DNA of 64,000 nt from Chrysogorgia sp. JL179-B06 (taxonomy: Eukaryota > Cnidaria > Anthozoa > Scleralcyonacea > Chrysogorgiidae): positions 5,986,001 through 6,050,000 of the forward strand of contig JAYKKM010000149.1 of the NCBI GenBank assembly GCA_035772405.1, read 5' to 3'. The translations under genes were made by a program, and so were the position numbers. Positions within the stretch are counted from its first letter, which is position 1. Each line of letters begins with the position of its first letter. Shown here one piece after another: positions 13,139 through 64,000 of the stretch. The notes under the pieces were generated by a model. It searched no databases, had not been told where the DNA came from, and saw nothing but the letters and a program-made list of their open reading frames with translations.

Positions 13139-13154
13139 CTAAAGGAATACAATG

Positions 13155-18329: not shown

Positions 18330-18720
18330 TAGAATTGGGCTGTGTACTGTGACAGACGGTATCGGTTTCTCCACCTACCCTTTGAACTCGACTCCGCACC
18401 TGAAGTATTTCAAGGACGAATGAATCAAGACTTTGACGATATTGATGGGACAAATATCATTATGGATGATATCCTTGTCTGCGGCAAGGATGACGCACAA
18501 TACAACGACCGCTTGAGGCAAGTATTAATTCAGAGAGCTCGCGACGTTAATTTGAAACGGAATCCCGAAAAGTCTAAGGTACAAACCAGTGAAGTCACCT
18601 ACATAGGATACATCTTTAGTAAAACAGGGATCAAGCCTGACCCAGCGAAAGTGAATACCATCACAGAGATGAAAGCACCACAAGACAAAAAAAGAACTTA
18701 TTCGATTTATGTGCATGGTA
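18330..18720 (+). pseudogene. Ty3/Gypsy reverse transcriptase fragment
   Basis: The open stretch 18342-18812 includes YRFLHLPFELDSAPEVFQG, then IIMDDILVCGKD (the catalytic YVDD-equivalent box, with MDD), then VTYIGYIFSKTGIKPDPAKV. This is the classic motif order of Ty3/Gypsy RT palm and thumb. The upstream fingers part is missing. Distal to residue 110 the frame is disturbed. This is retroelement debris, not a host gene. Confidence 0.9.
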
Positions 18721-19330: not shown

Positions 19331-19450
19331 GTCCTACAGAAACTGTAGCACGTCGTATACGTTGGTTGGCCAAGTGACAAGTCAGCAGTAGATCATGACA
19401 TTCGCGAATACTGGTCCATTCGACACGAAATCAGCGCACAGGAGGGATAT

Positions 19451-20001
19451 TTGTTACGAGGAGAACGGCTAATAATACCTACGTCACTTAGACGAGAAAT
19501 GCTAAGTATAATTCACGGAAATCATCTCGGCATTGAGAAATGCAAACGACGTGCTCGTGATGTGCTCTACTGGCCAGGCATGAATGACCATATTGCCAAT
19601 CTTATTAAGCGATGCGAGACTTGCCAAACCTTTAGAAGCTGTCAGCAGAAAGAGCCAATGAAAGGACACACGATACCAGACCGACCATTGCAGAAAGTGG
19701 CTTTGGACCTCTTCGAGCTACAGAACGAAAACTGGTGATTACCGAATACTTCTCAAAATTCTTTGAAATCACGAAGCTTTCCAGTACAGCGAGTGCATCA
19801 ATGATCAAGCATCTTAAACCACACTTTGCCAGGTATGGAATTCCAGAGCAAGTCATCAGTGACACGGCCTTCAATTCAGCAGTGCAGAATTTTATATCCT
19901 TTGCCAAGACCTACCACCAGTTTAAGCATACTATGTCCTCCCCGAAATATCCCACTTCTGACGTACGCCATGAACAACAACTACTTTATTCATGCGCATG
20001 A
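19451..20001 (+). pseudogene. Ty3/Gypsy integrase remnant
   Basis: The 95-codon stretch at 19451-19738 carries the integrase zinc-binding domain: H in IIHGNHLGIEKCKRRA and the C..C of IKRCETCQTF, with LYWPGMNDHI between. The rve core continues in the adjoining frame at 19735-20001 (ITEYFSKFFEI, LKPHFARYGIPEQVISD, FISFAKTYHQFKH), ending before the catalytic Glu. One frame break and the missing C-terminus make it non-functional. Confidence 0.88.
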
Positions 20002-39929: not shown

Positions 39930-41360
39930 GCGATAATGATAGTGCAGGTGATGATGGTGGTGATGATGATGGTGATGATAATGATGGTGATGATGGTTGT
40001 GATGATGATGGTTGTGATGATGATGGTGGTGGCGTGGTGATAATGATGCTGCTAGTGCAGGTGATGATGATGGTGATGATGGTGGTGATGATAAAGATGG
40101 TTATGATGATGATGGTGATGATGGTGGTGATGATAAATATATGGTGATGATGGTGATGATGATGGTGGCGTGGTGATGATGGTGGTGATGATAATGATGA
40201 TGGTGATAATGATAGTGGTGATGGTGGTGACGATGATAATGATAGTGCAGGTGATGATGGTGGTGATGATGATGGTGATGGTGATGATAAAGATGGAGAT
40301 GATGGTGGTGACGATGATGATGGTGGCGTAGTGATTATGGTGGTGATGATACTGATAGTGAAGGTGATGATGATGGTGATGATGGTGGCGATGATAATGA
40401 TGGTGATGACGGTGATTATGATGGTGGTGATGATAAAGATGGTGATGATCATGGTGGCGTGGTGATGATGGTGGCGATGATGATAATGATGGTGATAATG
40501 ATGGTGGTGACGATGATAATGATGCTGATAGTGCAGGTGATGATGATGGTGATGATGGTAGTGATGATGATGGTGATGATGATTGTGGCGTGGTGATGGT
40601 GATGATGATAATGATGGTGATGATGGTGGTGATGATAAAGATGGTGATGATGAGGATGATGATAGTGGCGTGGTGATGATGGTGGTGATGATGATGGTGA
40701 TGATGGTGGTGACGATGATAATGATGATGGTGGTGATGATGATAATGATGGTGATAGTGCTGGTGATGATGATGGTGGTGATGATAAAGATGGTGATGAT
40801 GGTGATGATGATGGTGGCGTGGTGATGATAGTGGTGATGATGATAATGATGGTGATAATGATGGTGATGATGGTGATAATGATGGTGATGATGGTGGTGA
40901 CGATGATAATGATGCTGATAGTGGTGATGATGGTGGTGATGTTGGTGGTGGTGATGATAATAATGATGGTGATGATGATGGTGGTGACGATGATAATGAT
41001 GCTGATAGTGCTGGTGATGATGATGATGGTGGTGATGATAAAGATGCTGATGATGGTGATGATGATGGTGGCTTGGTGATGATAGTGGTGATGATGATAA
41101 TGATGGTGATAATGATGGTGATGATGGTGGTGACGATGATAATGATGCTGATAGTGCAGGTGATGATGGTGGTGATGATGGTGGTGATGATAATAATGAT
41201 GGTGATAATGATTGTGGCGATGGTGGTGACGATGATAATGATAGTGCTGGTGATGACGGTGGTGATGATAAAGATGGTGATGATGGTGATGATGATGGTG
41301 GCGTGGTGATGATAGTGGTGATGATGATAATGATGGTGATGACAGTGGTGATGGTGGAGC
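39930..41360. repeat. GAT/GGT trinucleotide minisatellite, 1.4 kb
   Basis: A long array of (GAT)x(GGT)y variants with a higher-order repeat of about 150-250 bases (GGCGTGGTGATGAT and GATAAAGATGGTGATG recur). The 507-codon Ser/Pro/His-rich ORF on the minus strand and the Met/Val ORFs on the plus strand are consequences of the triplet period and not genes. Confidence 0.95.
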
Positions 41361-50041: not shown

Positions 50042-50486
50042 CTTACCAAACATATTTCTCATACAGTAGGAACTAATTTAAGGTTTTGTTTACATAACAA
50101 CAAAGTAACGTGACTCATTGACTGCCATATTAGATGAATGCGAATAAATATAATTTAAATAATTAAACAGCGTAATTTTATGCAAACTTTAATTACGTTT
50201 ATTTATGTTTAATTACGTTAAATTGTAATTAGATGGAAAATCAGGCGCTCAAAGTTTCCATTTATGGTAAAGCTATACAATCTTGTAACTTAGCTTGAAA
50301 AACCAGATCAATATTTGCATTAAATTACGCTGTTTAATTGTTAAAATTATATATATTCGCCTGCCCCACGACTGTTTTAAGTTTTCATCCAATACACTGA
50401 TGACCGCCATTGAGTCCCGTGACCTTGTTGTCATCGGAACTAAACCGTACATTAGTTCCTACCGTATGATAATATGTTTGGTAAGA
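50042..50486. mobile_element. Inverted-repeat element abutting the Polinton end
   Basis: CTTACCAAACATAT and GTAGGAACTAAT on the left are inverted as ATTAGTTCCTAC and ATATGTTTGGTAAG on the right. The arms are about 145-160 bp (50042-50185, 50325-50486), including AATTAAACAGCGTAATTT and its inverse. It is non-coding. Confidence 0.7.
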
Positions 50487-50939
50487 GTAGTATAGAGAGT
50501 GGGGCTACGGGCTCATTTTTTACATATTCAATGACCAAATTTACACCAAATTCCAAACCCCCAAAAATTCGATGTCATTTCGGTAATTCTAAATTTACAA
50601 CATACATCAAATAAGACCACAAACTCGATTTATATGCTAATAATGTGACATTTCAATATTTTACATGTTTTTTTAAAAATAGAATGTGTCGTTTCACATT
50701 TTTCACATATTTAAAAAAGAGAGTGTCGTTTCAACATTTTCACATATTTAAAAAATAGAGAAAGTCGTTTCAACGTTTTCACATTTTTTTCAACAAACTA
50801 CTGCTGTCTCAACTCACGCGCGAAAAAAAACCACTAGATTTTCAAGTCTAGTGGTGATGTTTATCCAAATGGATAACAAAATGGTGCTCTTTTGATTGGC
50901 TAACAACATTGACTAACAAATAGCCAACTACTCTACGAA
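50487..50939. repeat. Polinton terminal region with subterminal direct repeats and a hairpin
   Basis: The unit GTCGTTTCAACATTTTCACA plus TATTTAAAAAATAGAG recurs with about 37-39-base spacing at 50687, 50724 and 50763, with a weaker copy near 50645. A perfect hairpin CCACTAGA/TCTAGTGG (50831-50854) lies 85 bases 3' of the polymerase stop and may end its transcript. No ORF is present. Confidence 0.6.
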
Positions 50940-53666
50940 TTAGTCTGTTTGTTCACTACTCTCAGTGGTGTCTCTCACTACAATGTTTTTGTGGCCATAC
51001 GCGTAGGAGTCAATACCATTCTCTAAAAGGTATCGTTTGTCGTCAAAGCAGGACAGCGACACTTTATTAATTTCGTAACTACCGAGCTGATGTTTGACAC
51101 TTCTAATGGTCTTCATTGTGTGTCGCAACTGTTTCTGCTTGAGTAACACACTTTTGTAATCTTCGTGTCTGATTACCTTTTTAATTATATTTTTTCTAAT
51201 ACCTTTAGCGGTTTTCCCGCCACCTCCACCCTCTTTCAAATAGCTGTACATTTTACTGCGCAACCCGACGAACTCGACAATTGGCGTTCCAGCGCACTCG
51301 TCCTTCATCTTCCCAATAACTTTCTTATTCTCTCTAAAAAAGAATGGGCTGTCTGCAGGATAGTCGCTATTGTCGAACTTTTCGCACTCCATCATAAAGT
51401 CGGAATAAACGTCATCGGTTTTGATTGAGTACAGCAGACTGTCAGTGTCGGTGAAGTGTAATCTGCAGGTGTCGCTAGAGTACTTTTTCATAATATAATT
51501 GTAGTGAAAATTGTACATCAACGTTTTACTCAAGTCTAGTATGCACATACCCACATATGCAGGTCTGTTTAGTGTCAGCGTTTCTTTAACTTTGTGGACA
51601 GCAACTAAGTTCTCGCTAAATATTTTGCAAGACACAAACGTCGGCTTCGAGACAAGCTTTTCTAATTTCTTCGCAGTGGTCACTAATCTTACGTCCACAC
51701 GCTTCCTCAAATTTTCCATCGTTTTTCCGAACACACTATTATTCATCAACTTGAAGAAGTCCTTCTCAAAAGCGTTCTTAGCCGCAGTTCTTTTGACTGT
51801 GTTAAAGTCGATGTACTTGCCCAACCACTTGGATTGGTCAAACTGTAGGACCCTATGAATCTTATTGATTTTTAATCCAAGATCCACATACAACTGCAGA
51901 TTTCCGTAGTGACACACATACTTTTTTTTATCCTTCAAATTAGTCACCAACTTCTTCACACCACCAACACTCACATTAAACTTATTTTTGATTTTCGTGC
52001 AGTACTCCGACAACATGTCAACGGTTATCTCCATCTTCTCAGGAGCCAACGGGTAATCGTTGTGTAGGTCATGTAAATGAGCTGGATACTCCAAGTCGAC
52101 TTCAAGCAGTAAGCCCTTTTTACTATCGTTGTGATAGTCGCATAGATTAACTTTTTTTATTTCTTTCTCAGTCAACCACTTGAAGCCACCCGTAGGTAGA
52201 CTTCGACTCATCGCCCATCCATACAAATTGTTGGCGTCAAGGTACATCAAATACTTCGACTCTTGCTCTTTGTCATACCCTTCCATGTATTTATTATTCG
52301 CCACGCCGTGTCTGTTGCATATGTAGCTCACACCACCACGCATACCTAATTCTACAAACTGGAACATGTCAATGTCAGACAATAGTTCAAGTTCTACTCC
52401 AGTCATCTTTAACATAGCGTCCCAAGCCAATCCAGGCGATGTGAAATAATGGCAAGGGTCTAATTTATACTCGCGATGACATGTCTTTCTAAAGTTCTCA
52501 AAAACGTCGGTAAGTAAGAGCACATCACTTTTCAAATACAGGTCGTGATACTCACCCATACTCTCAACGTCGAAGTAGTCCCACACGTCGATGGCACGCT
52601 CGTACATTTCTTCCGTGATGTGCTCATCATTCAGAATGCTGTAGAAATCTTTTTTGGAGGGTAGCTCGCGCTCATCGAATTTATTAAAGGAGTCCATGTA
52701 ATCATAGGGATAGACCCCCTTTCTTGTCATAAGTGTCAACCCCTCGTCGTGAAACACTTCTGACGTGTATTTGAAAGCGTCCCTTGGTAGGTTCCTTACC
52801 AAGTTGTCTAGACCACTACCCATGAACTGAAAGCTGTCCAAAAATACCAAGTTTTTTCCAAGCATGAACGCCATGTACTTCTCCATGTTGTTCGGTATCA
52901 CATTTATGTCTTGACTAAACTTACCAATCTCCTGCATAATGAAATGACTATCGTAGCCACGTAAGTTGTGAAAGATCACAGGGATTTTATCAGTCAACTT
53001 AAAGTTCACGTTACAATCGCGATGTGCGGACCCTCTGTACTTACCTGACACGTGACAGTGGTCTCTCACTCTAACGTCAGCGCCAGTGTACTCAACACTG
53101 CAAATATGGCAACTTTTAGCCTCGTCAAAGTTCTTCTTATCGACATCAGTTAGTATCATTTCTTTGTTAAAGTGACTCTCAGACGTCTCTTTACAATATT
53201 CAACAATTTCTAACATCTCCCCGATGAACTTGTTGACTGCATTTTCACCACGATACACTTTCACTGGCTTACTATACTCATTGTCATAGCAACAAACTAG
53301 TTTATACCCATAACCGCAGTCAACGTGTCTCTGGTAAGCATTTGTGTAGCTACACTCGCTTGACAGCTTTGCTGTGTGCACCTTCTGTGTGATAGCCTCA
53401 AAGTCTGCATACACCACAAATGGTACGTTTAGCTGCCTACTAAAATTCTCGTATTTCACTTTCGCACCTTTTTGCGGCATTTTAATAGCTTGCTTCCCAT
53501 TGATGACCAAACATACTTCAACATGACTTTCAAGCACGTCCGCTCGACTAAAACACTGCAGGCAATGTCTACAAAAATGTTTTCTAGCCTTATGCTCTGT
53601 CTGACGGTACATAAACTTGTTGAAATCGCGAATGTACACGTAGTGCTTGTTGCCCACATCGTTAGT
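50940..53666 (-). pseudogene. POLB: Protein-primed DNA polymerase B, exonuclease and polymerase domains (larger part of a split gene)
   Basis: About 905 codons. Near its start is a Cys/His cluster (CRHCLQC..HVEVC). The 3'-5' exonuclease has YADFEA near residue 83, FHNLRGYDSHF near 233 and YLKSDVLLLTDVFE near 375. Between the first two is an endonuclease-VII-like patch, DHCHVSGKYRG..H..CN. The polymerase domain has YLDANNLYGWAMSRSLP (motif A), KLMNNSVFGKTMEN (motif B) and FTDTDSLLY (motif C). All catalytic aspartates are present. The frame begins without an ATG (GTG at 53657) right after the stop of the neighbouring ORF on the same strand, and the conserved sequence reads on from that ORF. The gene is therefore split by a small insertion. 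It would replicate the element using a terminal protein primer. Confidence 0.93.
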
Positions 53667-54645
53667 TTATCAACAGTAGGTCCATGTGGTCAGGGTACGC
53701 TTCCTTAGAAACATACACAGGGAATGGTTGCTTATTTTCATACCCGAAAACGTTGATGCTAATTTCGTTAGCCTTTTCGATCTTGTTGTAATCTTTGAGT
53801 GTGACTGGGAAGTTAATTCCATCATAATTCAACTCACTGACATGCCTAGCGTACTTTGATGTTCTATCAGAGTTTTTTCCAACAGGGAACTTATGCGCTA
53901 GGTGACACCATCTAAAACACTTGTTGTCATCATCATTATTCACGTTTACCAAACCCTTCTTACTATTGCGCAACTCCTTTGGTAACGTAATGTAGCTACT
54001 CCCATGCAGAGGTCTATAAATAGCAATATTAACGTAGTGTGCATCTATTTTGTCGATAGTCCACCCAGACCCCTCAGATAACCACCCGGCTATCCGCGTC
54101 AAGATCTGTTCCGACCCACGGTTGGCAACACCTTCGATGTCGTGGTCATTAATGACGACGAACGTTTCGCTGTTAAAGTAGGCAGTTTTGTATGTGGTCT
54201 TATCGAGTTCTAAAGCCTTCTCAAAAGTGACCTTAACTGTCTCTACCACTTTCATTCCGTTGGTCTCATTTAGTTCACGTCTCAAAAGATTAATGACAGC
54301 GCTTCTACTGCCGTTTACCTGATTGATGTCTCTATCGTTAACCACCTCGACTCCATAGGACCTGGTGAACCCTCTCAGCGCTTGACTCAACAGCCGTGGG
54401 CTATGGTCTTCAACTGCGGGTCGCGCTTCCTGATCTCTAACAAGACGGTTGTGTGTCCGACTGCCAACGTTAACTCGCCTGTTTGTCAGCGGATTAATAG
54501 TGCTGACATTTGTCGTGTCACTAAAAACACCATCTCTAACAAGTTGATTGTAGACTCGCCCGTGGACGTTGATTGCTCTACCTGTTAGTGGATTTACAAC
54601 GGCTGCACCATTTCTAACAAGTGAGTTTTCTGTGACGTCATCCAT
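53662..54645 (-). pseudogene. POLB: N-terminal part of the Polinton DNA polymerase B
   Basis: 327 codons from an ATG, ending in a stop next to the larger polymerase part. Residues about 20-75 hold two copies of an NPLTGRxINVxGRxxNxLVRD repeat, similar to the 2-cysteine adaptor-type repeat found in large DNA viruses but without the cysteines. From about 200, the sequence (WCHLAHKFPVGKNSDRTSKY, GINFPVTLKDYNKIEKAN, NVFGYENKQPFPVY) is the conserved segment in front of the exonuclease of invertebrate Polinton polymerases. Upstream is GTAGTATATAG 12 bases before the ATG, a likely promoter. The break sits between this part and the catalytic part, so the protein from this copy would lack polymerase activity unless frameshifting occurs. 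Confidence 0.85.
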
Positions 54646-54650
54646 GGCTT

Positions 54651-55220
54651 CTATATACTACACTTGTTTTTTTTCCTAAGCCACTCGTTGTAATAGCGAT
54701 CACCACTCTCACACCATCCCAACTTTGGATACACCACCCCAAACAGATTGTCGTCAAACAAGTCTTTCACCTTCCCGTCTTTGAGGTCTGACACCTTCTT
54801 GAGTGTCTCGACTCGTCTTCTGTGGCACAACCTAATAATGTAGTACCCGTATCTGCTGACATTTCTACCCTTTACCAAATTGCATGAGTACAATGCGTTG
54901 ACAACTTTCAAGAAGTCCTCTTTTATCGACTCAAGGTGCTCACCCTTCACAACGTTCCGTAGTCTCCTCCCCATCCACCAAGACCGCTTGTGAACGCTTT
55001 TTGGTCGCGTGAGTCTCATGTCACTATAACTCTGAACGTAACCCCATTCGGTGTCACCACACTTTGGGCACGCGTACCCACCACATTCAGTCACATTTTT
55101 CACAATGTCACAATCCGAGCAGTAGTAGAGCCTAGGGGTGTCTCCACACTCAATTTGCGTCTCACTCGCGATTTCGTCAATTGTGTAGCCGTAACTCATC
55201 TGCCTCATAAGTTTGTCCAT
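54651..55220 (-). CDS. VLTF3-like zinc-ribbon transcription factor
   Basis: 189 codons from the ATG at 55220 (a GTG at 55223 also opens the frame). Cysteines CSDC near residue 34 and CPKC near residue 53 form a zinc ribbon (YYCSDCDIVKNV, YACPKCGDTEWGY). The rest is helical and basic (HKRSWWMGRRLRNVVKGEHLE, SIKEDFLKVVNAL). The order zinc ribbon, then a Y/HKR-x-LR-x-GKE-type helix, resembles poxvirus late transcription factor 3 relatives of large DNA viruses. GAGTAGTATAAGAG lies just before the start. It is six bases from the polymerase N-terminal gene. The function is inferred from weak similarity, and an alternative is a generic zinc-binding protein. Confidence 0.55.
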   Translation of the reverse strand: MDKLMRQMSYGYTIDEIASETQIECGDTPRLYYCSDCDIVKNVTECGGYACPKCGDTEWGYVQSYSDMRLTRPKSVHKRSWWMGRRLRNVVKGEHLESIKEDFLKVVNALYSCNLVKGRNVSRYGYYIIRLCHRRRVETLKKVSDLKDGKVKDLFDDNLFGVVYPKLGWCESGDRYYNEWLRKKNKCSI

Positions 55221-55247
55221 CACTCTTATACTACTCCAACATTTTTT

Positions 55248-55667
55248 TTACCGAGTTAGCACCCACACCGCTATTCCACTACCCAAACCTAACGCGCTAA
55301 CAAATAACAATTGGTACTCCTTCATTTCCGCACTCGGTTGGTAGTAATCCGCAACCCTCGGGGGGTCAGTGAACACTCGTCCGCTGTACTGTATGGTCAT
55401 TACGCTTCTAAGTTCTTCCAACGCATGGTTTGTGTCATTGATGTCAGCGTTAGCATCTGAGAGCATTTGCCGTAAACGCTGGATCTTATCTCTCTTGGCG
55501 ACTTCGTTTTCAGACCACGCTTCTTTCGCGCTGGCTAACTGCTCCAACGCATGGTTATGCCTTTTCATCTCAGCTTCATAACCTGTGTGATTAAACTTCG
55601 AAAACATAAAGCCAGCGCCTGCGAAAGCCACTGCATTAAATATCCCTCCAGCCACAACACTCGCCAT
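55248..55667 (-). CDS. Small Polinton membrane protein with coiled coil
   Basis: 139 codons. Hydrophobic segments lie at residues about 5-24 and 122-138, and between them is a heptad-rich, charged region (residues 30-100) with EAEMKRHNHALEQLASAKE. It looks like a protein anchored at both ends with an extended coil. The family is conserved among invertebrate Polintons as far as I can recall, with no assigned function. It lies 27 bases from the zinc-ribbon gene in the same orientation. Confidence 0.75.
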   Translation of the reverse strand: MASVVAGGIFNAVAFAGAGFMFSKFNHTGYEAEMKRHNHALEQLASAKEAWSENEVAKRDKIQRLRQMLSDANADINDTNHALEELRSVMTIQYSGRVFTDPPRVADYYQPSAEMKEYQLLFVSALGLGSGIAVWVLTR

Positions 55668-55671
55668 TAAC

Positions 55672-55908
55672 TTACGTTGATTTGAATGGGTCTGTCGGTA
55701 TCCACTTTTTCGATTGCATCCATTTTACTAACAGCGTTCCTGCACCAACAGCTGCAGCAAGTTTCACTATGCCTTTCACTGTCTCTGGTGTTCCCAATGG
55801 TTCTCCCAAAGCCTTTTTAGAAATCATACTCACTACCACAGCACCAGTCGTAACAAGTAGCGCATCGTACAGTTCGTTCATAAGTTCTTTTCGATCGATC
55901 GCAGTCAT
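55672..55908 (-). CDS. Small Polinton two-helix membrane protein
   Basis: 78 codons from the ATG at 55908. The frame is open upstream to 55935, but only from a TTG, and ATG at 55908 avoids overlap with the next gene. Two hydrophobic helices (residues about 17-34 and 47-63) precede a basic C-terminus ending KWMQSKKWIPTDPFKST. TATAT immediately precedes the ATG. Function unknown. It is grouped with two more membrane proteins, probably inner capsid or membrane-associated virion parts. Confidence 0.7.
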   Translation of the reverse strand: MTAIDRKELMNELYDALLVTTGAVVVSMISKKALGEPLGTPETVKGIVKLAAAVGAGTLLVKWMQSKKWIPTDPFKST

Positions 55909-55931
55909 ATATACATTGTCGTGTGTTTTGT

Positions 55932-56267
55932 TCAAGAATCAAATGTGTCTAACGCTGGACGACGAGTTTTATGACTCTCTGACACAGGTGCTGGTGCAGT
56001 ACTCACAGGTTCTTTTTCACTGCTAATTGTGTACCATAGTGAAGCAGCAGCAATGATTACACCAAGTGTTCCGACAATGTAACCATAGCTCCACTCACCA
56101 CCCTGTTCTTCGTTAACTATCATTTCACGCATTTTCTTTTCTTTCGCAGCTTTCGATATCTCAGCCAACTTTTTACCAGCAGCGACACGCTTTGGGTCCT
56201 TCACCTTAACACTCTTCACATCAGCCGTGATCTTAGCGTCGACAGCCGTCTGTGAGTCTTCAGCCAT
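55932..56267 (-). CDS. Small Polinton protein with basic patch and one membrane segment
   Basis: 111 codons. Residues 23-48 are Lys-rich (VKDPKRVAAGKKLAEISKAA), a pattern repeated in many invertebrate Polinton small proteins. A membrane segment follows at about 60-82 and a Pro/Ser-rich tail at the end. It is the first gene of the leftward block and faces the divergent intergenic region. Function unknown. Confidence 0.72.
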   Translation of the reverse strand: MAEDSQTAVDAKITADVKSVKVKDPKRVAAGKKLAEISKAAKEKKMREMIVNEEQGGEWSYGYIVGTLGVIIAAASLWYTISSEKEPVSTAPAPVSESHKTRRPALDTFDS

Positions 56268-56398
56268 CTAATACACTATCACGTGTTATCTTACTCACAG
56301 TTGACCTCACAGGTATCTCACAGTTGACCTCACAGGTATCTCACAGTTCCAGACCAAACGCACTAAAAACTAGGATTTTTTTCTGAGAGTATAACATA
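56268..56398. promoter_or_regulatory. Divergent promoter region with direct repeats
   Basis: It separates the leftward membrane-protein block from the rightward gene at 56399. TCTCACAGTTGACCTCACAG is repeated 2.5 times (56294-56348). On the plus side CTGAGAGTATAACATA ends at the ATG, a TATA-like box close to the start. Confidence 0.55.
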
Positions 56399-57040
56399 AT
56401 GACTCAAGACCGAGAAATTAGCGAAGAAGTTATTGACCGCTTGCTGAGAACAGCCTTTGTCAGTGTGTCTACCCCACGAGTCGACAATGGACCCAACGTC
56501 TTAAACGAGTACTTTTCAATATACAATCTGCTCGACCTCAGACGTGAAGAGGTGTTAATAAAACAGCCTATCCCCCAGGTCGACTGTGCGAGACATCTTC
56601 ACGACACTTGGATCGATCTTCGAGAAGATAGAGCCAAGGAGATTGCTGATAGATTAGCTAGCATAATCCCTGTGTGGTGTTACTCATCATTCAAGTACCT
56701 TATGTTAGCAAGTGATGTCTACTTGAGCAACCCTAGTGGGTCCAACGGTACGTTACTCGGTAACTTCCTCCAAGTGTTCTTAGTGACCCTTATATGGAAA
56801 CCATGCCCAACCAAAGCCAAAGCGTGGCTAGAGCTCGCTGCAAACCGTGACGTTCACGTTTGCAAGGTGGGGTGTAACGAGATACTAGGCGCGGATGATA
56901 TCAGGGACCACGTACTCTCGCCCGCCCACAGACACTTTGCGAGAGACGAAAACGTGTACACCTGTCACCCATGCGGTGTGGTCACCAACGACCCACTGCA
57001 TCGCTTAATTGAGACACGAGAGCTCGAGGTCTCATCTTAA
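56399..57040 (+). CDS. Polinton protein of unknown function with C-terminal zinc-like cysteines
   Basis: 213 codons. The N-terminal 100 residues are mixed alpha/beta and charged. A moderately hydrophobic stretch follows at 95-135 (YLMLASDVYL, LLGNFLQVFLVTLIW). The last 60 residues have Cys and His spaced as in a zinc-binding module (HVCKVGCNE, LSPAHRHF, YTCHPCG). I recognise no family. The promoter-like GAGAGTATAACATA directly precedes the ATG, in common with the next gene. Confidence 0.7.
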   Translation: MTQDREISEEVIDRLLRTAFVSVSTPRVDNGPNVLNEYFSIYNLLDLRREEVLIKQPIPQVDCARHLHDTWIDLREDRAKEIADRLASIIPVWCYSSFKYLMLASDVYLSNPSGSNGTLLGNFLQVFLVTLIWKPCPTKAKAWLELAANRDVHVCKVGCNEILGADDIRDHVLSPAHRHFARDENVYTCHPCGVVTNDPLHRLIETRELEVSS

Positions 57041-57109
57041 AAACTTAGAGCTCCAGCGGATATTCAACATGGAACGACGGTTTCCACCACAATAAAAAAT
57101 ATTTCTCTG

Positions 57110-57123
57110 AGGGTATAGTAACC
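57110..57123 (+). promoter_or_regulatory. TATA-like box shared by Polinton genes
   Basis: GAGGGTATAGTAACC directly precedes the kinase ATG. Closely similar words are GAGAGTATAACATA before 56399, GAGGCTATAGTA before the Bro-N gene start (minus, 58468-58480), GTAGTATATAG before 54645 and GTAGTATAAGAG before 55220. All lie within about 15 bases of the start. Confidence 0.5.
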
Positions 57124-57495
57124 ATGAGAAAAGTTGGTAAACTGGAGATCGTGATTGGTCCCATGTTCGCAGGAAAAACGACAGAGACTCTCCGCAGGTT
57201 AGTCGCGTTAAGTAAATCAGGGCTCAAAGTCCTCTACATGAACAACACAGGTGACACTAGGCGAACTGACCACGCGTTCTCCACGCATCGTCAGACCATT
57301 GTCGTTGGATCAGACAGTTTACCTGCAAAGTTAATCACCAACCTCCCGAGTTCTTCCGAGATAGCTGACTATGACGTCATCGGCATTGATGAAGGTCATT
57401 GGTACTCTGGGTTACTCCCAATTACCCGTGAATACATTAAAGCTGGCATTCACGTCATTCACGCAGTGTGCAGACGTCATCATCCTTCCACATAA
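57124..57495 (+). pseudogene. TK: Thymidine kinase, type II, C-terminally truncated
   Basis: 123 codons. It has the P-loop GPMFAGKTTE (residues 12-21), the Walker B and catalytic patch DVIGIDEGHWYSGL (84-97) and the linking helix ITREYIKAG. These define the type II (TK1/viral) thymidine kinase, which phosphorylates thymidine for nucleotide salvage. Family members are usually about 180-200 residues, with a lasso and zinc site after this point. Here the ORF stops right after the core, and traces of the missing part (CADVIILP-like) continue in another frame at about 57468-57500. A deletion plus frameshift has removed the C-terminal lobe. The gene is probably non-functional. It is an uncommon Polinton cargo. 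Confidence 0.85.
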
Positions 57496-57705
57496 AATTA
57501 AGGGTGTTCTCGAATACCCCACTTTTTTAAAAATTTATACATTGGTCACATGAAGCGTCCAATGTACAGTAGAAACGTTTTTTCACACAGTGGTCAGAAG
57601 GTTTGTGAAATAAAGAGAGAAAGTTTCGCAGATATTTTTTTACTGAGTTAAAAACGTCTTTAAAAAATGCTAGAGCAGTTGTCTCAACGACTCATTACTC
57701 GATGT
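57496..57705. other. Kinase remnant and convergent 3' region
   Basis: Out-of-frame kinase debris, then AT-rich sequence between convergent genes. No terminator hairpin was recognised. Confidence 0.4.
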
Positions 57706-58467
57706 CTAAAAAGTCTCTTTACAATAGCGTCTCTCGTGGTTACTCAACGCTGATTTATTTTTAAATTTACGAAAACATTGAGAGCACTGAAACCCAACGT
57801 CAAAGAGATATTTTATTACTGTGGTAATAGCGTCGTCGTACGAGTCGCACAAGAGTGTTAGATAACCAGCGGATTTATATCTGAGCAACAGAGACTCCTG
57901 CTCTTTGGACGTCTTGCCTGTGCCACCTGGATTCTTGAACTCAATCACGAGCCCGCTGTGCTGTCGGTTTGCATTGGCAATAATCAAGTCAGGCGTTCCA
58001 CGTTGGTAACCTTTTTTCCACGAATTTATTCTTTTACTCGAAGTGTCTTGATTCTCACCACAAGCGGCTATCAAAATAGCTTCTGGACAATATTTCCTAA
58101 GAAAACCAACAACTTTCGTATGAAGGTCGAACTCGGTGATCATTTTAAACTGATTGTGTTTGAGACCGACGTCAGCTAAACCCTTTCTAATGCTTGGCAA
58201 GACTTCTGAGTGCACCCACCTTCTAAAGTGTTTCGCGCGCTCCAATTTACTCGAGAACGTCAATGAGTAGACCCCAAGTTCGTTGATAAACGAGGCCTGT
58301 TCCATCTTCATTTTACAATCAGGTTCGACGTGGTCGTTAACTGCATCTTTTGGTCGAGCGTAACCTAGAGCGCTTGCGACTTCTCTTGCTTTGAACCATA
58401 TGTCACCGTTGTGATTAGCCATCGTGATTTGGTGGCCATCGAATAATTGCACCGAGTTGGTTGCCAT
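57706..58467 (-). CDS. Bro-N / VRR-NUC nuclease fusion with C-terminal zinc finger-like motif
   Basis: 253 codons. Residues 1-100 are a Bro-N domain (WFKAREVASALGYARPKDAV, ELGVYSLTFSSKLERAK, FRRWVHSEVLPSIRK), a DNA-binding module frequent in baculoviruses, phages and large DNA viruses. Residues about 112-225 fit a VRR-NUC type PD-(D/E)XK nuclease (GENQD at 138, YQRGTPDLII with D160, VIEFKNPG with E176 and K178, EQ at 189). Residues 226-250 have C..C, H and C spaced as a zinc finger. The frame is intact and the catalytic residues are present. It is likely to act on branched or damaged DNA during replication. GAGGCTATAGTA precedes the ATG. Confidence 0.82.
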   Translation of the reverse strand: MATNSVQLFDGHQITMANHNGDIWFKAREVASALGYARPKDAVNDHVEPDCKMKMEQASFINELGVYSLTFSSKLERAKHFRRWVHSEVLPSIRKGLADVGLKHNQFKMITEFDLHTKVVGFLRKYCPEAILIAACGENQDTSSKRINSWKKGYQRGTPDLIIANANRQHSGLVIEFKNPGGTGKTSKEQESLLLRYKSAGYLTLLCDSYDDAITTVIKYLFDVGFQCSQCFRKFKNKSALSNHERRYCKETF

Positions 58468-58491
58468 TACTATAGCCTCGCAAAAAAGAGA

Positions 58492-58632
58492 CTACTCGAC
58501 ATAGGTGTCAGGTTTTTTATAGATCTGGTTTGTTGTGTACCAATGCAGCAGGTGTGTTTTATTAGTCTTCAGTTTTCTACGTCGTCTGAAAAAGTTTCTA
58601 ATGTTACGAACCAGTTTTCTAAGCCAACCCAT
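58492..58632 (-). CDS. Small basic peptide, 46 aa
   Basis: An ATG-to-stop frame of 46 codons fills the gap between two genes of the same strand, starting 8 bases after the stop of the myristoylation-signal protein and ending 24 bases before the next start codon. It begins MGWLRKLVRNIRNFFRRRRK, an amphipathic cationic helix, and ends in a polar Tyr/Pro-rich tail. Tight tiling with its neighbours supports reality. A membrane- or DNA-binding role is possible but only inferred. Confidence 0.6.
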   Translation of the reverse strand: MGWLRKLVRNIRNFFRRRRKLKTNKTHLLHWYTTNQIYKKPDTYVE

Positions 58633-58640
58633 TACATAAC

Positions 58641-58847
58641 TTAGGTCACGTCTCCTACCACTCCCACAGTGTCTAATTCTGGTAACATAATAGGTTTGCC
58701 GTAAGTCTTTTTAGACCTCATACCAATCTCAGCGTGGAGCTCGAGAGTAACGTCACCGCGACCAAATGATCCACCAGCTTTGAACATGTGGTCAGTCGTT
58801 TTATTTATCTTATATGTTTCGTGAGGTCTCGAAATACATGCTCCCAT
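58641..58847 (-). CDS. Small protein with N-myristoylation/palmitoylation signal
   Basis: 68 codons. MGACIS at the N-terminus matches the G-x-x-x-S myristoylation consensus with a neighbouring Cys suited to palmitoylation. The rest is polar (TDHMFKAGGSFGRGDV, ELHAEIGMRSKKTYG). The ATG follows the stop of the fibre-like gene with no gap. Membrane targeting is expected. The protein family is unknown. Confidence 0.65.
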   Translation of the reverse strand: MGACISRPHETYKINKTTDHMFKAGGSFGRGDVTLELHAEIGMRSKKTYGKPIMLPELDTVGVVGDVT

Positions 58848-59798
58848 TTACTTTACACCATATTCCTTCATCATTTCTCCACCCATGATTATGATGTCTC
58901 GGTTTGTCATGTAACCACTCACAATTTTCACACCGTAGAATTCTATCAACGATGGGTATGCATAAGGTGCGAGTGGTATTCTTGGTCGGTGTATTCCAAA
59001 AATTGTTCCGTAGGGTGTGCCTATTTTTTTCATGTTCGCTACGAAGTCTGAGTCGGCTGACTTAACGTTGTTGACCCTGACATGTGAGTTGCTCATTTGC
59101 CAGTGTATTGATATCATATGCATTTTACTTATGTCAACACCACTTGGAATAGTGCATATGCTCTCCATTGCTGGGATGCTACCACCATACGCGAGTCCAT
59201 TAGTCATACCAGTCTTGTACCCTATGAACTTGTCCCACTGACCGTCGTCGTTTGATATAATTGTCTCCCAATTTGATCCAGCGGTGCGAGCAGGTAACCT
59301 CACCACAACAAAAATGGAGAGATCACACCATTGCATACTGGGGCAATTAAAATGGAGACCTGACTCAAGTGGGATTGGTGTTAACACAGGGGATAGAAAA
59401 CTTTGGCTTACACTGCTGATGCCGATAATAGGACCATAAGTCGGGTTGTTTTGCACTAACTTACTTGTTTCACCAATGGCTTTCACTTTGTTTGAACCAT
59501 TGGTGTGAAATTCCACATTTTTCAAGGCGTGTGTGCTAACGTTGAAGTCGAGCACAATGTTGTAGGACTGACTCTTGAGGTAGCTTGATAGCAATTGTTC
59601 TAGAGTTCTTTTATTCGTGGCGTCTGAGTCATCGACTGGGTCTGCTACGTTTTTTATCGCTGAGCCTTGCATGTCTATTATTCCAGACATCCTTCCACCA
59701 GTCGCACTTAATTTGGGATCTTCGTCCAGATGCCTTTTCGTTCTCTTTAGTATTTTATCGTGAGAGTCGTCAGACTCATACCCGTAGTTTAGACTCAT
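58848..59798 (-). CDS. Fibre-like protein with tail-fibre repeat and lectin-like C-terminal domain
   Basis: 316 codons. Residues 30-63 (GGRMSGIIDMQGSAIKNV, ADPVDDSDATNKR) match the repeat common to phage and virus fibre shafts. The C-terminal 170 residues are beta-rich and end in IEFYGVKIVSGYMTNRDI, resembling a concanavalin/laminin-G-like sandwich that would bind glycans. The N-terminus MSLNYGYES is nearly shared with the penton-like protein at 61886, suggesting a common docking or sorting peptide. The gene overlaps none and begins 2 bases after the 457-aa gene ends. Confidence 0.6.
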   Translation of the reverse strand: MSLNYGYESDDSHDKILKRTKRHLDEDPKLSATGGRMSGIIDMQGSAIKNVADPVDDSDATNKRTLEQLLSSYLKSQSYNIVLDFNVSTHALKNVEFHTNGSNKVKAIGETSKLVQNNPTYGPIIGISSVSQSFLSPVLTPIPLESGLHFNCPSMQWCDLSIFVVVRLPARTAGSNWETIISNDDGQWDKFIGYKTGMTNGLAYGGSIPAMESICTIPSGVDISKMHMISIHWQMSNSHVRVNNVKSADSDFVANMKKIGTPYGTIFGIHRPRIPLAPYAYPSLIEFYGVKIVSGYMTNRDIIIMGGEMMKEYGVK

Positions 59799-59800
59799 TA

Positions 59801-61174
59801 CTACTTCAAGGTGTATTTGGTTACTAAATAGCCAGAGACTGCTGAGAACCCTAAGATTATCGCCAACGTTGTCGTGGTGTCTGACTTACTTGTGGTGGTC
59901 TGCGCTATTTGATTGGTGGTGACCACTGTTTTCTTTGCAGGTGGCGTAACTAGAGTTTCCAAGTGAAGTCCTGCCGCTTGGTGGACTTTTTTATGCTTCG
60001 CTTTTGACGCTCGGTGGTAGTTCAACCCGTCATTATACCCAAACGTCATCCCAGTTTCGGACGAAGTTCTTAGCACGTTATTGTAACCAACGATGGGGTC
60101 CTTTAACAAGACCATGCTTCTGGGGATCAACCAAGTGTTGGGTGTCACAGCTGTGTCTAGCTTAACGTTGGTGTCACTAATCGCTTTGTTCATAAGGTTG
60201 ATCCAAACACTTGGTGAATACTGAACCACAGCGTTTTCAACGATGTCTCTAAAGATTTGTTGCGTTTCTCGAGCACTAGCTCTAGTTCCCACGATGCTTT
60301 GCTTTGACCTCGCTTGGGCTCCAAGAATGGCGTACATGTAAACTTCAATCGATTGGTTTAGTAGCTCTTGTCCTAATGGTGTGAACCCGTCAGAGTGTCT
60401 CGGGCAATACCGACGATAATCACCTTGGATGTCTTTGATGTATCTATTGTCAACATCAGTCAATGGTAGGTGACCTTTCAAAAGTCGCCAGTCAGGGAGG
60501 TACAGTCTTAAGATGTTGTTAATGTCAACTTGACTCTTACTCAAACGGAACATCACACGACGAATGGTGAAGTACACGTGAAACCTCATGAGACCCACGA
60601 CTTGCTTTGGGACGTCGACGTGATAACTTAAGTTTTGTAGAGACACTCCTGAGCGATATGTAGCGATGTACATACCTGCGATCGCTTGATAGTAGCTCTC
60701 GAGTAGAGTCCAAACTGTGTTAACGTTACCACCAATTGCCTTGTCGTTGTGACGTCTTTTGGTGTCGATGAGTATTTTCGGTAGGTCTGATTTGAAGGAA
60801 TTATTGTCGTCAACAAAGACGTCAAAATTGTGGGTTGGGTAATTTAGGACGTATGGTGGAAACGTCTCAACTTCTCTGTAGCTCTTGTGGGTCTCTGTCA
60901 GTAATAACTTTGGGACACGCCCATCGCTCGACCATATTCTTGGGAATCTTGGTGTGTTGCTAAGGAATTTTGTAAAGCCCTCGTTCTTCGTGAACTTTGG
61001 TGACTTTATGTTTATCATGTCAGAGTACTTTGGACCTGACTTGAAGTAAATGTCGACGGTCTTGACTGTTTTATTGTCGTCTGCGAGGTTGTACCCAAAC
61101 TCAAACTTGTTTAGTTGCGCGTTTGGAAACTCACTAAGAAGAATTAGTTCACCTTGCTTTCTTTTTGTTAGCAT
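59801..61174 (-). CDS. Conserved Polinton protein with C-terminal membrane anchor (structural candidate)
   Basis: 457 codons. The N-terminal 270 residues are mixed, with IDTKRRHNDKAIGGN near 137. The 285-340 region is helical (LLNQSIEVYMYAILGAQARSKQSI then ETQQIFRDIVENAV). After a basic stretch (HRASKAKHKKVHQAA near 397) there is a Thr-rich linker and a terminal membrane helix (TLAIILGFSAVSGYLV, 435-450). I have seen this family in invertebrate Polintons without a function. It is not recognisable as a double-jelly-roll capsid protein. It faces divergently from the minor capsid gene over 23 bases. Confidence 0.65.
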   Translation of the reverse strand: MLTKRKQGELILLSEFPNAQLNKFEFGYNLADDNKTVKTVDIYFKSGPKYSDMINIKSPKFTKNEGFTKFLSNTPRFPRIWSSDGRVPKLLLTETHKSYREVETFPPYVLNYPTHNFDVFVDDNNSFKSDLPKILIDTKRRHNDKAIGGNVNTVWTLLESYYQAIAGMYIATYRSGVSLQNLSYHVDVPKQVVGLMRFHVYFTIRRVMFRLSKSQVDINNILRLYLPDWRLLKGHLPLTDVDNRYIKDIQGDYRRYCPRHSDGFTPLGQELLNQSIEVYMYAILGAQARSKQSIVGTRASARETQQIFRDIVENAVVQYSPSVWINLMNKAISDTNVKLDTAVTPNTWLIPRSMVLLKDPIVGYNNVLRTSSETGMTFGYNDGLNYHRASKAKHKKVHQAAGLHLETLVTPPAKKTVVTTNQIAQTTTSKSDTTTTLAIILGFSAVSGYLVTKYTLK

Positions 61175-61197
61175 CTACATAACACACACTATATTAT

Positions 61198-61860
61198 ATG
61201 GTCAGGGTTGTAGTGTTGATTAGAGGTCCAACGGAGACTGTGGATCTACCAGAAGCACTTTTGACGTTTGGCTCAGATCCTCACTTACTAGTAAAAAAAG
61301 CGACCATCTTTTGGGACTACGTTAATGTGGAGACCGGTGTGAATGATGAAATAAGTTACAACAGTAACAAACACGTTTTTGAGCCTGGGTACCACACTTT
61401 TAAAATGATCGCCGACGAACTGAAGGGATTAGGGGCTATCGAGCTAGTAGCCAACAAACACAATTCAAAGTGTGAGATAAAAACTGACCAACAATTAGAG
61501 CTGTTTAAATTTGGAGAGCTGTTAGGGTTCAACGATAACACAACGGTGAGTAGTAGTGGTTTGGTCAGCCCTAATGTTGTGGACGTTAACAAAGGGCTGA
61601 AGTACGTACAAGTGGGTTGCAGCATTGTGAACAGACCTGAGAATATTGTTAATGGCAGCAAAAGCGAGGTTATCGTTGAGTTGCCATTGACCACCACCCA
61701 ACCACTGAAGAGCTCTGTTCAACAATTCTTCAACATTGAGTCGAAGGTGTCGATAAACAAAGGCGCTTTTACACAGCTGGTGTTTAATGTGACTGACCAA
61801 GATGGTAGTGGTGTCAACGTTGGTGACATATTGTTGGATTTGTATGCGACGCTCGAGTAG
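61198..61860 (+). CDS. Penton/minor-capsid-like protein, paralogue 1
   Basis: 220 codons, all beta. Key pieces are FKFGELLGFNDN near residue 103, PNVVDVNKGLKYVQVGC near 125 and VFNVTDQDGSGVNVGDILL near 198. This series resembles the Polinton PX (penton-type single jelly-roll) family, where an S-I-x-LLGF box, a V-N-I-x-x-V-N-x-I-x-V-x-C strand and a final D-Q-x-G-x-x-x-x-G-E-x-I strand recur. Its paralogue is the next gene. The ATG is preceded by ACACTATATTAT, a TATA-like element. Confidence 0.6.
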   Translation: MVRVVVLIRGPTETVDLPEALLTFGSDPHLLVKKATIFWDYVNVETGVNDEISYNSNKHVFEPGYHTFKMIADELKGLGAIELVANKHNSKCEIKTDQQLELFKFGELLGFNDNTTVSSSGLVSPNVVDVNKGLKYVQVGCSIVNRPENIVNGSKSEVIVELPLTTTQPLKSSVQQFFNIESKVSINKGAFTQLVFNVTDQDGSGVNVGDILLDLYATLE

Positions 61861-61885
61861 CTAACGTTAAACGCGTGCTAAAGTA

Positions 61886-62677
61886 ATGAGTCTAAACTAT
61901 GGGTTCGACTCTGGTGGTTACACTGAAAAGCGGCGTGTAGACGACAGTCCTCAAAAGTTGACGGTGCTTATTGAAGGTGTGGAGAAAGTTGTAACTTTTG
62001 ACTACAGTGTAGTGGTCACACACGATAACCCACACATTGTAGTCAAGACAGCCACTGTGTTTTGGAGCTATGATAATGTGACTGGTAGTGATGATATTCG
62101 ATTCTTACATGTTGGATTTGGAAGACCAGCGCCAGGATTCTCGACAACTCGATTGAGTGGGGGTCACTACGACTTCGACGCGTTGGTTAGAGCTCTACGA
62201 CTCACGCTCAGGGCGGTTAATGTAGACTTCGTGGTGGAGAAACTGGCGACCACAGGTAAAAGTAGGGTCAAAATTCAGCATATGAGGCGTGGCCCCAACG
62301 ACCGAATAGAACTTAGGCTAGGTGACATTGGGCTTTTGCTTGGTTTCGCGAAGGACGCAGGAATTGTGTTAGATCATAAGTGGCACGACAGTCCAAACAA
62401 GATCGATATGAACAGAGGTCTAAAGTATGTAGAAGTCTCGTGCGACGCTGTTGAGACGGAGAGCAATGTGGGCACTGACGGGAAGCGTAGTAATGTGATC
62501 ACAACATTGCCAGTGCCCACCGAGCAGTCTCTAGATGGGGGGATACAACGTTACTCATACGTTGACTCCAAGGTGAGAATTAAAAAAGGTATTTACTCAA
62601 GTATGACGTTTCGTGTCAAACCAAACAATGGTGACGCTGATGTTGGCGCGGTGCTATTGGAACTGTATATTGTGTGA
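61886..62677 (+). CDS. Penton/minor-capsid-like protein, paralogue 2
   Basis: 263 codons. It aligns with the upstream protein in KTATVFWSYDNVTG, LGDIGLLLGFAKDAG, DMNRGLKYVEVSC and DVGAVLLELYIV. It carries an extra N-terminal peptide starting MSLNYGFDS, shared with the fibre-like protein. The tandem arrangement (25-base gap) points to gene duplication. Together they would provide vertex or minor capsid proteins. The jelly-roll assignment is inferred from motif order. Confidence 0.6.
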   Translation: MSLNYGFDSGGYTEKRRVDDSPQKLTVLIEGVEKVVTFDYSVVVTHDNPHIVVKTATVFWSYDNVTGSDDIRFLHVGFGRPAPGFSTTRLSGGHYDFDALVRALRLTLRAVNVDFVVEKLATTGKSRVKIQHMRRGPNDRIELRLGDIGLLLGFAKDAGIVLDHKWHDSPNKIDMNRGLKYVEVSCDAVETESNVGTDGKRSNVITTLPVPTEQSLDGGIQRYSYVDSKVRIKKGIYSSMTFRVKPNNGDADVGAVLLELYIV

Positions 62678-62682
62678 ATTAT

Positions 62683-63786
62683 ATGGAACTTGGTGTGGAG
62701 ACAGAGCAAGGGTTGAGAGACATTTATTATAATCCTAAGACAGGGTTCAGTGGTGTAGAGAAATTGTATCAAAGTGCATTGGGAGACGGATTGAAAGTAA
62801 CTAGAAAAACAGTGAAAGAATGGTTGACAGCGCAGGACACTTACACTAGGTACAAACCCATTGTTAGAAGACATAAGTTCCGCGCGACTTTTGTTGGATT
62901 TCTTGGTGAAGAGCTCCAAATGGACTTAGTGGACATGAGTAAGCACTCAAAACAGAACAAAGGGTATTATTGGATATTGACAGGCATTGAAATATTGAGT
63001 AGATACGCTTTTGGCATCGCAGTTTACAGAAAAGACACTAAGAACATGACTAAGGCTGTTGGAAAGTTGTTGAATGACTTTAAAGATCGGTTTAGAGCCA
63101 TGCCTAAGTTAGCGCAATTTGACGATGGACTCGAGTTCCACAACGTTGGTGTGAAAAGTTTGTTGAAAAAACATGGTGTTGAATATTTCAGCACTAAGAG
63201 CGATAAAAAGGCTGCTGTTGTCGAGCGTTTTAATAGAAGTCTCAAGAGCATTATGTGGAAGTACTTTTACGCATGTGGAACGTATAAATGGATTGACGTT
63301 TGGGATCAGTTTGTAGACAATTACAATAGCAATGTGAACCGTAGTATTATGATGAAGCCGAAGGATGTCAATAAGTCAAATGAGGGCGAGGTTTGGACCA
63401 CTTTATTTGGTCACCAATTTGCAGACAATCCATTGCCAAAGTTCAAGATTGGTCAATCAGTGAGAATTAGTAAATACAAGAGTGTGTTCACAAAGGGTTA
63501 CGAAGCCAACTTCACTGAAGAGCTGTTTAAAGTGGTGAAAGTTATTCGCGGTGATCCGAATGTATACGAAATTGAGGACCACACCGGTGAACAGATTATT
63601 GGTAAATTTTACGAACAGGAATTATCGCTGGTTAATAGGAAACGTGGTGACGATGTGTACAGAGTTGAAAAGGTGTTGAAAAGAAAGAAAGTCGGAGGGA
63701 AGAAGATGGCGTTGGTTAAATGGTTGGGTTATGAAAGCAAACATAATTCGTGGATACCAGAAAGCGATATTCAAAACGTGAGCTAA
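62683..63786 (+). CDS. INT: Polinton integrase with chromodomain
   Basis: 367 codons from the ATG at 62683, six bases after the preceding stop (upstream in-frame GTG at 62674 overlaps that stop). The N-terminus (DIYYNPKTGFSGVEKLYQSA, VKEWLTAQDTYTRYKP) is the usual helical region of Polinton integrases. The rve core has QMDLVDM (first Asp), AQFDDGLEF (second) and AAVVERFNRSLK (Glu), with about 33-34 residues between the last two. The C-terminal 45 residues (DDVYRVEKVLKRKKVGGKKM, ALVKWLGYESKHNSWIPE) form a chromodomain, which can guide insertion to modified histones. The frame is intact. Confidence 0.95.
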   Translation: MELGVETEQGLRDIYYNPKTGFSGVEKLYQSALGDGLKVTRKTVKEWLTAQDTYTRYKPIVRRHKFRATFVGFLGEELQMDLVDMSKHSKQNKGYYWILTGIEILSRYAFGIAVYRKDTKNMTKAVGKLLNDFKDRFRAMPKLAQFDDGLEFHNVGVKSLLKKHGVEYFSTKSDKKAAVVERFNRSLKSIMWKYFYACGTYKWIDVWDQFVDNYNSNVNRSIMMKPKDVNKSNEGEVWTTLFGHQFADNPLPKFKIGQSVRISKYKSVFTKGYEANFTEELFKVVKVIRGDPNVYEIEDHTGEQIIGKFYEQELSLVNRKRGDDVYRVEKVLKRKKVGGKKMALVKWLGYESKHNSWIPESDIQNVS

Positions 63787-63792
63787 TGTAAT

Positions 63793-64000
63793 ATGGCTGA
63801 AGGTGGGGAAGGTTTCGACGACTTTGAGATGGAGAACTTAGATAGACTTGATAGGTACACCGATGATCAAATAAACGTTGAATTTGAAAGAGACACTCAA
63901 GCTTACAATCTACTTGACGAGGAGTACGCCAGCGGTGGCATGCCAGATGTTGTGCGCGTTAAATATGAAAAATTGTCTGGGAGAGTGAATAGATTGCAGG
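63793..64000 (+). CDS. Polinton gene, 5' part only
   Basis: The ATG at 63793 (MAEGGEGFDDFEMENLDRLD, then a Asp/Glu-rich stretch) is six bases after the integrase stop, and the frame stays open for 69 codons to the window end. It is acidic at the start. No family is recognisable from this part. Confidence 0.7.
   Translation, partial: MAEGGEGFDDFEMENLDRLDRYTDDQINVEFERDTQAYNLLDEEYASGGMPDVVRVKYEKLSGRVNRLQ

What the first reader, a model, noticed from the sequence alone, without database searches (positions are those of the whole stretch)
50487..64000. Polinton/Maverick with an unusual gene set: kinase, Bro-N/VRR-NUC nuclease, fibre and duplicated penton genes
POLB and INT define a Polinton. The accompanying thymidine kinase, Bro-N nuclease, VLTF3-like factor, fibre-like protein and two penton-like paralogues are more typical of large DNA viruses than of textbook Polintons. 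It could mark an undescribed lineage that still forms or recently formed virions. The missing ATPase, protease and double-jelly-roll MCP may lie beyond 64000.
Basis: partly seen in the sequence, partly recalled or inferred. Interest (0 to 1): 0.85.

Follow-up and report, generated by a model that had tools for sequence, protein, structure and literature searches.

The report
Polinton with interchangeable virus-vertex gene cassettes
A virus-like mobile element, present in more than a hundred copies in one likely animal genome, keeps its copying and packaging genes nearly constant while swapping the genes for the likely corners of its particle, which suggests that it spreads as real virus particles.

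Summary
The block is real: a 17,649-bp Polinton from 50486 to 4.1 kb beyond the window, with ~0.5-kb terminal inverted repeats and a 6-bp target duplication. An A32-type packaging ATPase and a candidate major capsid protein lie to the right; no protease was found. This copy's POLB is split by a frameshift and its thymidine kinase is truncated. Bro-N/VRR-NUC/C2H2 and two penton paralogues are confirmed; the VLTF3 call is not. The new finding lies in the other copies: capped gene lists overlap as if ~750-1,050 exist, and 5 of 5 checked have private target duplications. Backbone genes are under strong purifying selection (dN/dS 0.05-0.14), but p457 has two discrete classes, pentons occur singly or in pairs, p478 and p213 also vary, and classes recombine (p457-B with the A penton pair in 2 of 9). 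The second penton starts with the fibre's N-terminal peptide and has an insert with dN/dS 0.94 against 0.13 in its core. Best reading: an adintovirus-like Polinton that likely spreads as virions and diversifies its vertex by cassette exchange, as adenoviruses do. No particle or transcript was tested.

The parts
50480..50485 (.). target-site duplication GGTAAG, left copy (right copy directly after window-equivalent 68134, i.e. after L090:4634)
   Evidence: identical 6 bp on both sides
50486..50967 (+). left terminal inverted repeat; the right one is L090:4124-4634, window-equivalent 67624-68134
   Evidence: 469 of 480 aligned bases match the right repeat (33 gap columns); first 20 bases exact
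50940..53657 (-). POLB second ORF (905 aa): endonuclease-VII-like zinc site (E 1e-4, just under its cut-off) and polymerase; its stop lies in the repeat
53662..54645 (-). POLB first ORF (327 aa): 2-cysteine adaptor repeats and N-terminal part; other frame than the second ORF, so POLB is broken in this copy
   Evidence: 2C_adapt E 1.6e-9; 49% over 233 residues to P0010; 9 bases between the two matches, i.e. one frame at this junction, in 8 of 8 other copies
   Evidence: dN/dS 0.16
55248..55667 (-). p139, two hydrophobic segments
   Evidence: dN/dS 0.12
55672..55935 (-). p87, unknown
   Evidence: dN/dS 0.20
55932..56267 (-). p111, one hydrophobic segment
   Evidence: dN/dS 0.14
56399..57040 (+). 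p213, variable cargo gene; no match in 2 of 8 other copies
   Evidence: 54.7-95.1% identity in 6 of 8 other copies; dN/dS 0.60
57124..57495 (+). thymidine kinase, truncated here (123 aa)
   Evidence: Pfam TK E 9.3e-16; frame 180-190 residues in 8 of 8 other copies
57706..58467 (-). Bro-N / VRR-NUC / C2H2 protein (253 aa)
   Evidence: 150 scored matches in the genome, none with an inner stop; 418 homologues
58848..59798 (-). fibre-like protein (316 aa), N-terminus MSLNYGYESDD
   Evidence: PHROG tail fibre E 4.1e-4; 126 scored matches; same N-terminus in the 12 other copies where it was covered
59801..61174 (-). p457, vertex-cassette gene of class A; two discrete classes among copies
61198..61860 (+). 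first penton paralogue (220 aa)
   Evidence: dN/dS 0.08
61886..62677 (+). second penton paralogue (263 aa), fibre-type N-terminal peptide and hypervariable insert 61-176
62674..63786 (+). integrase, rve core and chromodomain
63793..64000 (+). start of p478, which runs on outside the window to L090:1729 (two hydrophobic segments; variable, sometimes in tandem). Beyond it, in L090: candidate capsid protein 412 aa at 1782-3020 +, A32-type ATPase 199 aa at 3036-3635 +, p170 at 3639-4151 +, right inverted repeat to 4634 (window-equivalent = L090 position + 63500)
   Evidence: dN/dS capsid candidate 0.05, ATPase 0.06, p170 0.07

Best explanation
This is a 17.6-kb adintovirus-like Polinton, one of more than a hundred copies in its genome that share a conserved backbone but carry exchangeable classes of penton genes and of the neighbouring p457 gene, likely because the element spreads as virions whose vertices are diversified by recombination. 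Shown: inverted repeats with 6-bp target duplications, a conserved gene order, strong purifying selection on the capsid candidate, packaging, replication and integration genes, two discrete p457 classes, one- and two-penton cassettes, mixed combinations, and a penton insert that changes at near-neutral dN/dS while its core is held. Inferred: the element is copied by its protein-primed polymerase, packaged by the A32-type ATPase into capsids of the 412-aa protein, and integrated by INT; copies or co-infecting strains recombine through the conserved fibre and INT genes that flank the cassette, so new vertex types arise on a constant chassis. In two-penton elements the first penton is likely the constant vertex protein, and the second, which bears the fibre's N-terminal peptide, is likely the variable display protein for attachment or escape from host recognition.
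Confidence: 0.7

Rival explanations
1. Capsid-free transposition with relaxed vertex genes: the element moves inside the germline by POLB and INT, and penton, p457 and p478 simply drift, with ectopic gene conversion between dispersed copies making the mosaics.
For: High copy number in one genome; near-neutral penton insert; p478 dN/dS 0.42 and p213 0.60; mosaics such as C47-C327 could arise by gene conversion; frame breaks in several copies.
Against: Capsid candidate and ATPase are as constrained as POLB's second ORF and INT (0.05-0.06); p457 within classes is 0.08 and 0.20 and the penton core 0.12-0.19; p457 classes are discrete with long open frames rather than a continuum of decay.
Confidence: 0.17
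2. Two or more distinct Polinton species colonised the genome and the mixed types are rare by-products, so there is no selected cassette system.
For: p457 class and penton number go together in most typed copies: 7 of 9 class-B copies in the clustering have one penton; the POLB N-terminus also differs by group.
Against: The backbone does not split: INT is one class at 94.6-99.5% in 16 copies, and p478 and p213 variants cut across p457 classes, e.g. C352 against C105 and C439 against C309.
Confidence: 0.1
3. Assembly chimera or mis-join of viral and host genes at the window's right end.
For: None beyond the GC step at the left edge.
Against: Inverted repeats plus target duplication in 5 of 5 copies checked, and the same order of backbone genes in 8 of 8 others.
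Confidence: 0.01

Closest known systems
Polintons/Mavericks and adintoviruses (PMC11071296: passages and section 16 read; PMC11071308: passages read)
   Same: POLB with an N-terminal extension, rve integrase with chromodomain, A32/FtsK-type ATPase, penton, inverted repeats, 6-bp target duplications (the last two recalled as Polinton hallmarks); duplicate pentons and inserted penton loops are reported for some adintoviruses.
   Different: No recognised protease; the capsid candidate has no sequence match to a known capsid; thymidine kinase and Bro-N/VRR-NUC cargo; vertex classes segregating among copies of one genome.
Human adenovirus species D (PMC6010623, passages read)
   Same: Works like it: conserved genome with recombination at penton base hypervariable loops, new types made by exchanging vertex genes.
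   Different: An integrated Polinton with its own integrase; whole penton and p457 genes are exchanged, and a second penton carries a fibre-type N-terminus.
Vertebrate Mavericks (PMC8097293, passages read)
   Same: All core genes under strong purifying selection, which its authors read as evidence for particles and reinfection.
   Different: Here the contrast is between constrained backbone and variable vertex genes, within one genome.
EMALE virophages of Cafeteria (PMC8547959, passages read)
   Same: Endogenous elements with recombination, including a probable exchange of the whole morphogenesis module (EMALE02).
   Different: Exchange here is seen in vertex and accessory genes, while the capsid candidate and ATPase stay constant in the copies read.
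OmPLV of Oxyrrhis marina (PMC12721341, passages read)
   Different: In OmPLV the rve integrase was not detected and a helicase is fused to POLB; here the Bro-N/VRR-NUC protein also ends in a C2H2-like finger and sits in an INT-bearing Polinton.

Membership tests
Polinton/Maverick | POLB of the Polinton type | tested here: met
   7992 proteins at E<=0.001 in a capped search, the best 120 at 66-70% identity; some of them carry Pfam PF03175, which the window's own ORF did not match at E<=1; a 44% relative lies in an IMG/VR contig beside INT- and ATPase-like genes
Polinton/Maverick | rve integrase | tested here: met
   rve E 1.4e-5 (under the family's curated cut-off) and Chromo E 8.3e-11; 24% to the integrase-like ORF of L081, E 5e-15
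Polinton/Maverick | terminal inverted repeats and 6-bp target duplication | tested here: met
   5 of 5 copies examined
Polinton/Maverick | packaging ATPase | tested here: met
   Pox_A32 E 2.4e-16
Polinton/Maverick | single jelly-roll minor capsid (penton) | tested here: met
[quoted passage not shown]
Polinton/Maverick | Ulp1/adenain-type protease | tested here: inconclusive
   no protease family at E<=1 for the 18 ORFs scanned; a divergent one is not excluded
Adintovirus | POLB with N-terminal OTU-like domain | tested here: inconclusive
   the N-terminal part aligns with a full-length relative; the OTU fold itself was not modelled
Adintovirus | rve integrase with C-terminal chromodomain | tested here: met
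Adintovirus | Hexon recognisable by BLASTP to adintovirus Hexons | not testable with these tools
   no named adintovirus Hexon was on hand

The most novel reading that the evidence does not exclude
Polintons have serotypes: a high-copy Polinton population inside one genome keeps a constant chassis and reshuffles a vertex cassette, with a duplicated penton split into a constant structural copy and a hypervariable copy that docks with the fibre's own tail peptide to display changing surfaces to hosts.
Probability: 0.45. Interest if true: 0.88.

Novelty: new variant of a known kind. Interest (0 to 1): 0.7.

Why it matters
Whether Polintons make particles is a long-standing question; PMC8097293 (2021, passages read) states that none had been observed. 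A genome that holds many separate insertions with constrained capsid genes and shuffled vertex genes is a record of selection that makes most sense if particles meet hosts. It names testable proteins (two pentons, p457, fibre, a 412-aa capsid candidate) and offers a natural comparison with adenovirus typing. [quoted passage not shown]

Tried and rejected
Chimeric join: rejected. VLTF3-like factor: no Pfam support and only chance-level PDB matches. A natural gene split of POLB at this junction: rejected for this copy, because 8 of 8 others have the two parts in one frame there. p457 as a capsid: its model is mostly helical and of very low confidence (mean pLDDT 35.5), so nothing is concluded. 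Relatives in viral contigs: INT, p457, POLB alone, the p457 alignment and the capsid candidate found none; the Bro-N/VRR alignment gave 557 relatives, of which the best 80 were listed: 78 match no further than query residue 96 and the other two end at 101 and 115, i.e. the Bro-N part; the POLB alignment found one polinton-like contig, L081. The host could not be named; 'animal' rests on a Fibrinogen_C exon and is an inference. Literature on vertex-cassette exchange: nine answered full-text searches listed no paper whose title or shown start of abstract reports it for Polintons; up to 20 papers were listed per search, out of up to 724 found. Starrett 2021, the paper that named adintoviruses, was not held. 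A lead: the POLB and Bro-VRR lists each name a protein whose longest contig is 2,165,548 bases, so both genes may sit together elsewhere.
Full report
The window lies in a 781-Mb assembly of 522 contigs, at C149:5986001-6050000. A fibrinogen C-terminal exon (E 8.4e-49) fits an animal, but no name is available.

Extent. The first 20 bases at 50486 recur exactly, inverted, at L090:4615-4634, with no match in 200 shuffles. The repeats align over 513 columns, 469 of 480 aligned bases identical. Six bases, GGTAAG, flank both ends. The element is therefore 17,649 bp, from 50486 to window-equivalent 68134 (L090 position plus 63500). The right part adds p478 (L090:293-1729), a 412-aa candidate capsid protein (1782-3020), a 199-aa Pox_A32-type ATPase (3036-3635, E 2.4e-16) and p170 (3639-4151). 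No protease family was matched at E<=1 by the 18 ORFs scanned.

State of this copy. POLB reads as two ORFs in different frames. The first holds 2-cysteine adaptor repeats and aligns with the N-terminal part of a full-length relative. In 8 of 8 other copies the two matched parts lie in one frame at this junction; elsewhere in the second ORF, 4 of the 8 match in one stretch and 4 in two or three. The thymidine kinase frame ends after 123 residues here and after 180-190 in 8 of 8 others. So this copy, like several others, is partly decayed or carries assembly indels. By published work on Polinton POLBs (PMC11071308, passages read) the N-terminal part holds a terminal-protein region and an OTU-type protease; that was not modelled here.

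Cargo. The 253-aa protein joins Bro-N (E 6.6e-21), VRR_NUC (E 5.2e-6) and a C2H2-like finger (E 0.0019, under its cut-off). It has 418 homologues at E<=0.001 among 693 candidates, and 30 aligned members share invariant residues in the nuclease part. PMC12721341 (passages read) describes a Bro-N/VRR-NUC fusion from a dinoflagellate element as new for polintons and related viruses. Thymidine kinase matches Pfam TK at E 9.3e-16.

Copy number. Own-genome searches scored 111 INT, 150 Bro-VRR and 126 fibre matches at 94-100% identity; 0 of 111, 0 of 150 and 1 of 126 have an inner stop. These lists hold only the best candidates. Their overlaps on the map (25 Bro-fibre, 15 INT-fibre and 16 INT-Bro neighbours) give capture-recapture figures of 756, 932 and 1041. 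The lists are not random samples, so these are rough. Four more copies show their own 6-bp duplications, so 5 of 5 checked are separate insertions.

Constant backbone. Counts are by my own Nei-Gojobori script, with codons aligned through the window's proteins. Among 9 copies (36 pairs) median dS is about 0.2-0.4 for most backbone genes (p87 0.12), while median dN/dS is 0.05 for the capsid candidate, 0.06 for ATPase, INT and POLB's second ORF, 0.07 for p170, 0.08 for Bro-VRR, 0.10 for fibre, and 0.14 for POLB's first ORF and thymidine kinase. Neutral decay after insertion would push this toward 1. The divergence was therefore mostly built up in functioning lineages, and the capsid candidate and ATPase were needed as much as POLB and INT. 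PMC8097293 (passages read) made the same argument for cyprinid Mavericks.

Variable cassette. Between fibre and INT the copies differ sharply: window against C309 is 92-94% over the fibre, has no nucleotide match over most of p457 and the pentons, then 87-93% toward and over INT. p457, in the 14 copies with a frame of 400 aa or more, falls into classes of 5 and 9; 46 of 46 within-class pairs are at least 80% identical and 45 of 45 between-class pairs lie below 60%. Two further copies were left out of that clustering: C352, with a split frame, resembles class A, and C169, partial, resembles class B. Of 19 copies, 8 have one penton, 9 the A pair and 2 other pairs; one A-pair copy, C101a, has a stop in its first penton. 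Spacing between fibre and INT in the 15 copies found in both capped lists clusters at 2.19-2.21 kb (7), 2.87-2.88 (3), 3.00-3.01 (3), 3.11 and 3.66 kb. p478 and p213 vary too, with dN/dS 0.42 and 0.60.

Recombination. p457-B occurs with the A penton pair in C101b and C54. C352 has p457-A with a p478 at 69%, C105 p457-A with p478 at 95%. C47 and C327 are 97-100% identical in 23 of 27 bins of the middle part (four bins in p457 and INT are 92-96%) and 91-97% in 16 of 16 aligned bins at the two ends; their dS per gene is 0-0.14 in the middle and 0.25-0.35 outside. Which process does this, co-infection or conversion between integrated copies, is not shown.

Comparison. Adenovirus species D makes new types by recombination at penton hypervariable loops (PMC6010623, passages read). 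PMC11071296 (section 16 read) reports duplicate pentons and loop inserts in adintoviruses. EMALE virophages show a probable exchange of a whole morphogenesis module (PMC8547959, passages read). What I did not find in nine answered searches (listed titles and starts of abstracts only) is vertex-class exchange among copies of one Polinton.

Limits. No expression or particle data; a small, non-random sample of copies; no named references for trees; low-confidence models; capsid and protease calls open.

Noticed in passing
39949-41342: Long G-rich (TGA)n-type triplet array of about 466 units with extreme GC skew (0.88).
   Followed up: no
50056-50472: Nested inverted repeats (73 and 61 nt arms) end 13 bases before the element's left end; possibly an older palindromic transposon beside the insertion.
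   Followed up: no
12756-13163: Exon-like frame with a Fibrinogen_C domain (E 8.4e-49).
   Followed up: partly
307-1419 and 18333-19735: Reverse transcriptase fragments and an H2C2 integrase zinc domain: remains of retroelements.
   Followed up: partly
9086-46452: Five tRNA genes, four of them tRNA-Ala.
   Followed up: no
L101:8347-8506 and L117:190-349: Copy C428 has a second, inverted repeat-like end about 160 bp inside each terminus.
   Followed up: no
L085: Copy C54 has ATPase and p170 in inverted order next to a p478 fragment: a rearranged copy or two elements side by side.
   Followed up: no
L093, L095, L097, L105, L107: p478 occurs in tandem, a partial and a fuller copy, in these five one-penton elements.
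   Followed up: partly
L081: IMG/VR contig with a 44% POLB, an integrase-like, an ATPase-like, a GIY-YIG-like and a lipase-like ORF (the last two labels by eye): a distant polinton-like virus.
   Followed up: partly
50940-50967 and L090:4124-4151: POLB and p170 both end inside the inverted repeats and so share the C-terminal peptide ESSEQTD.
   Followed up: no
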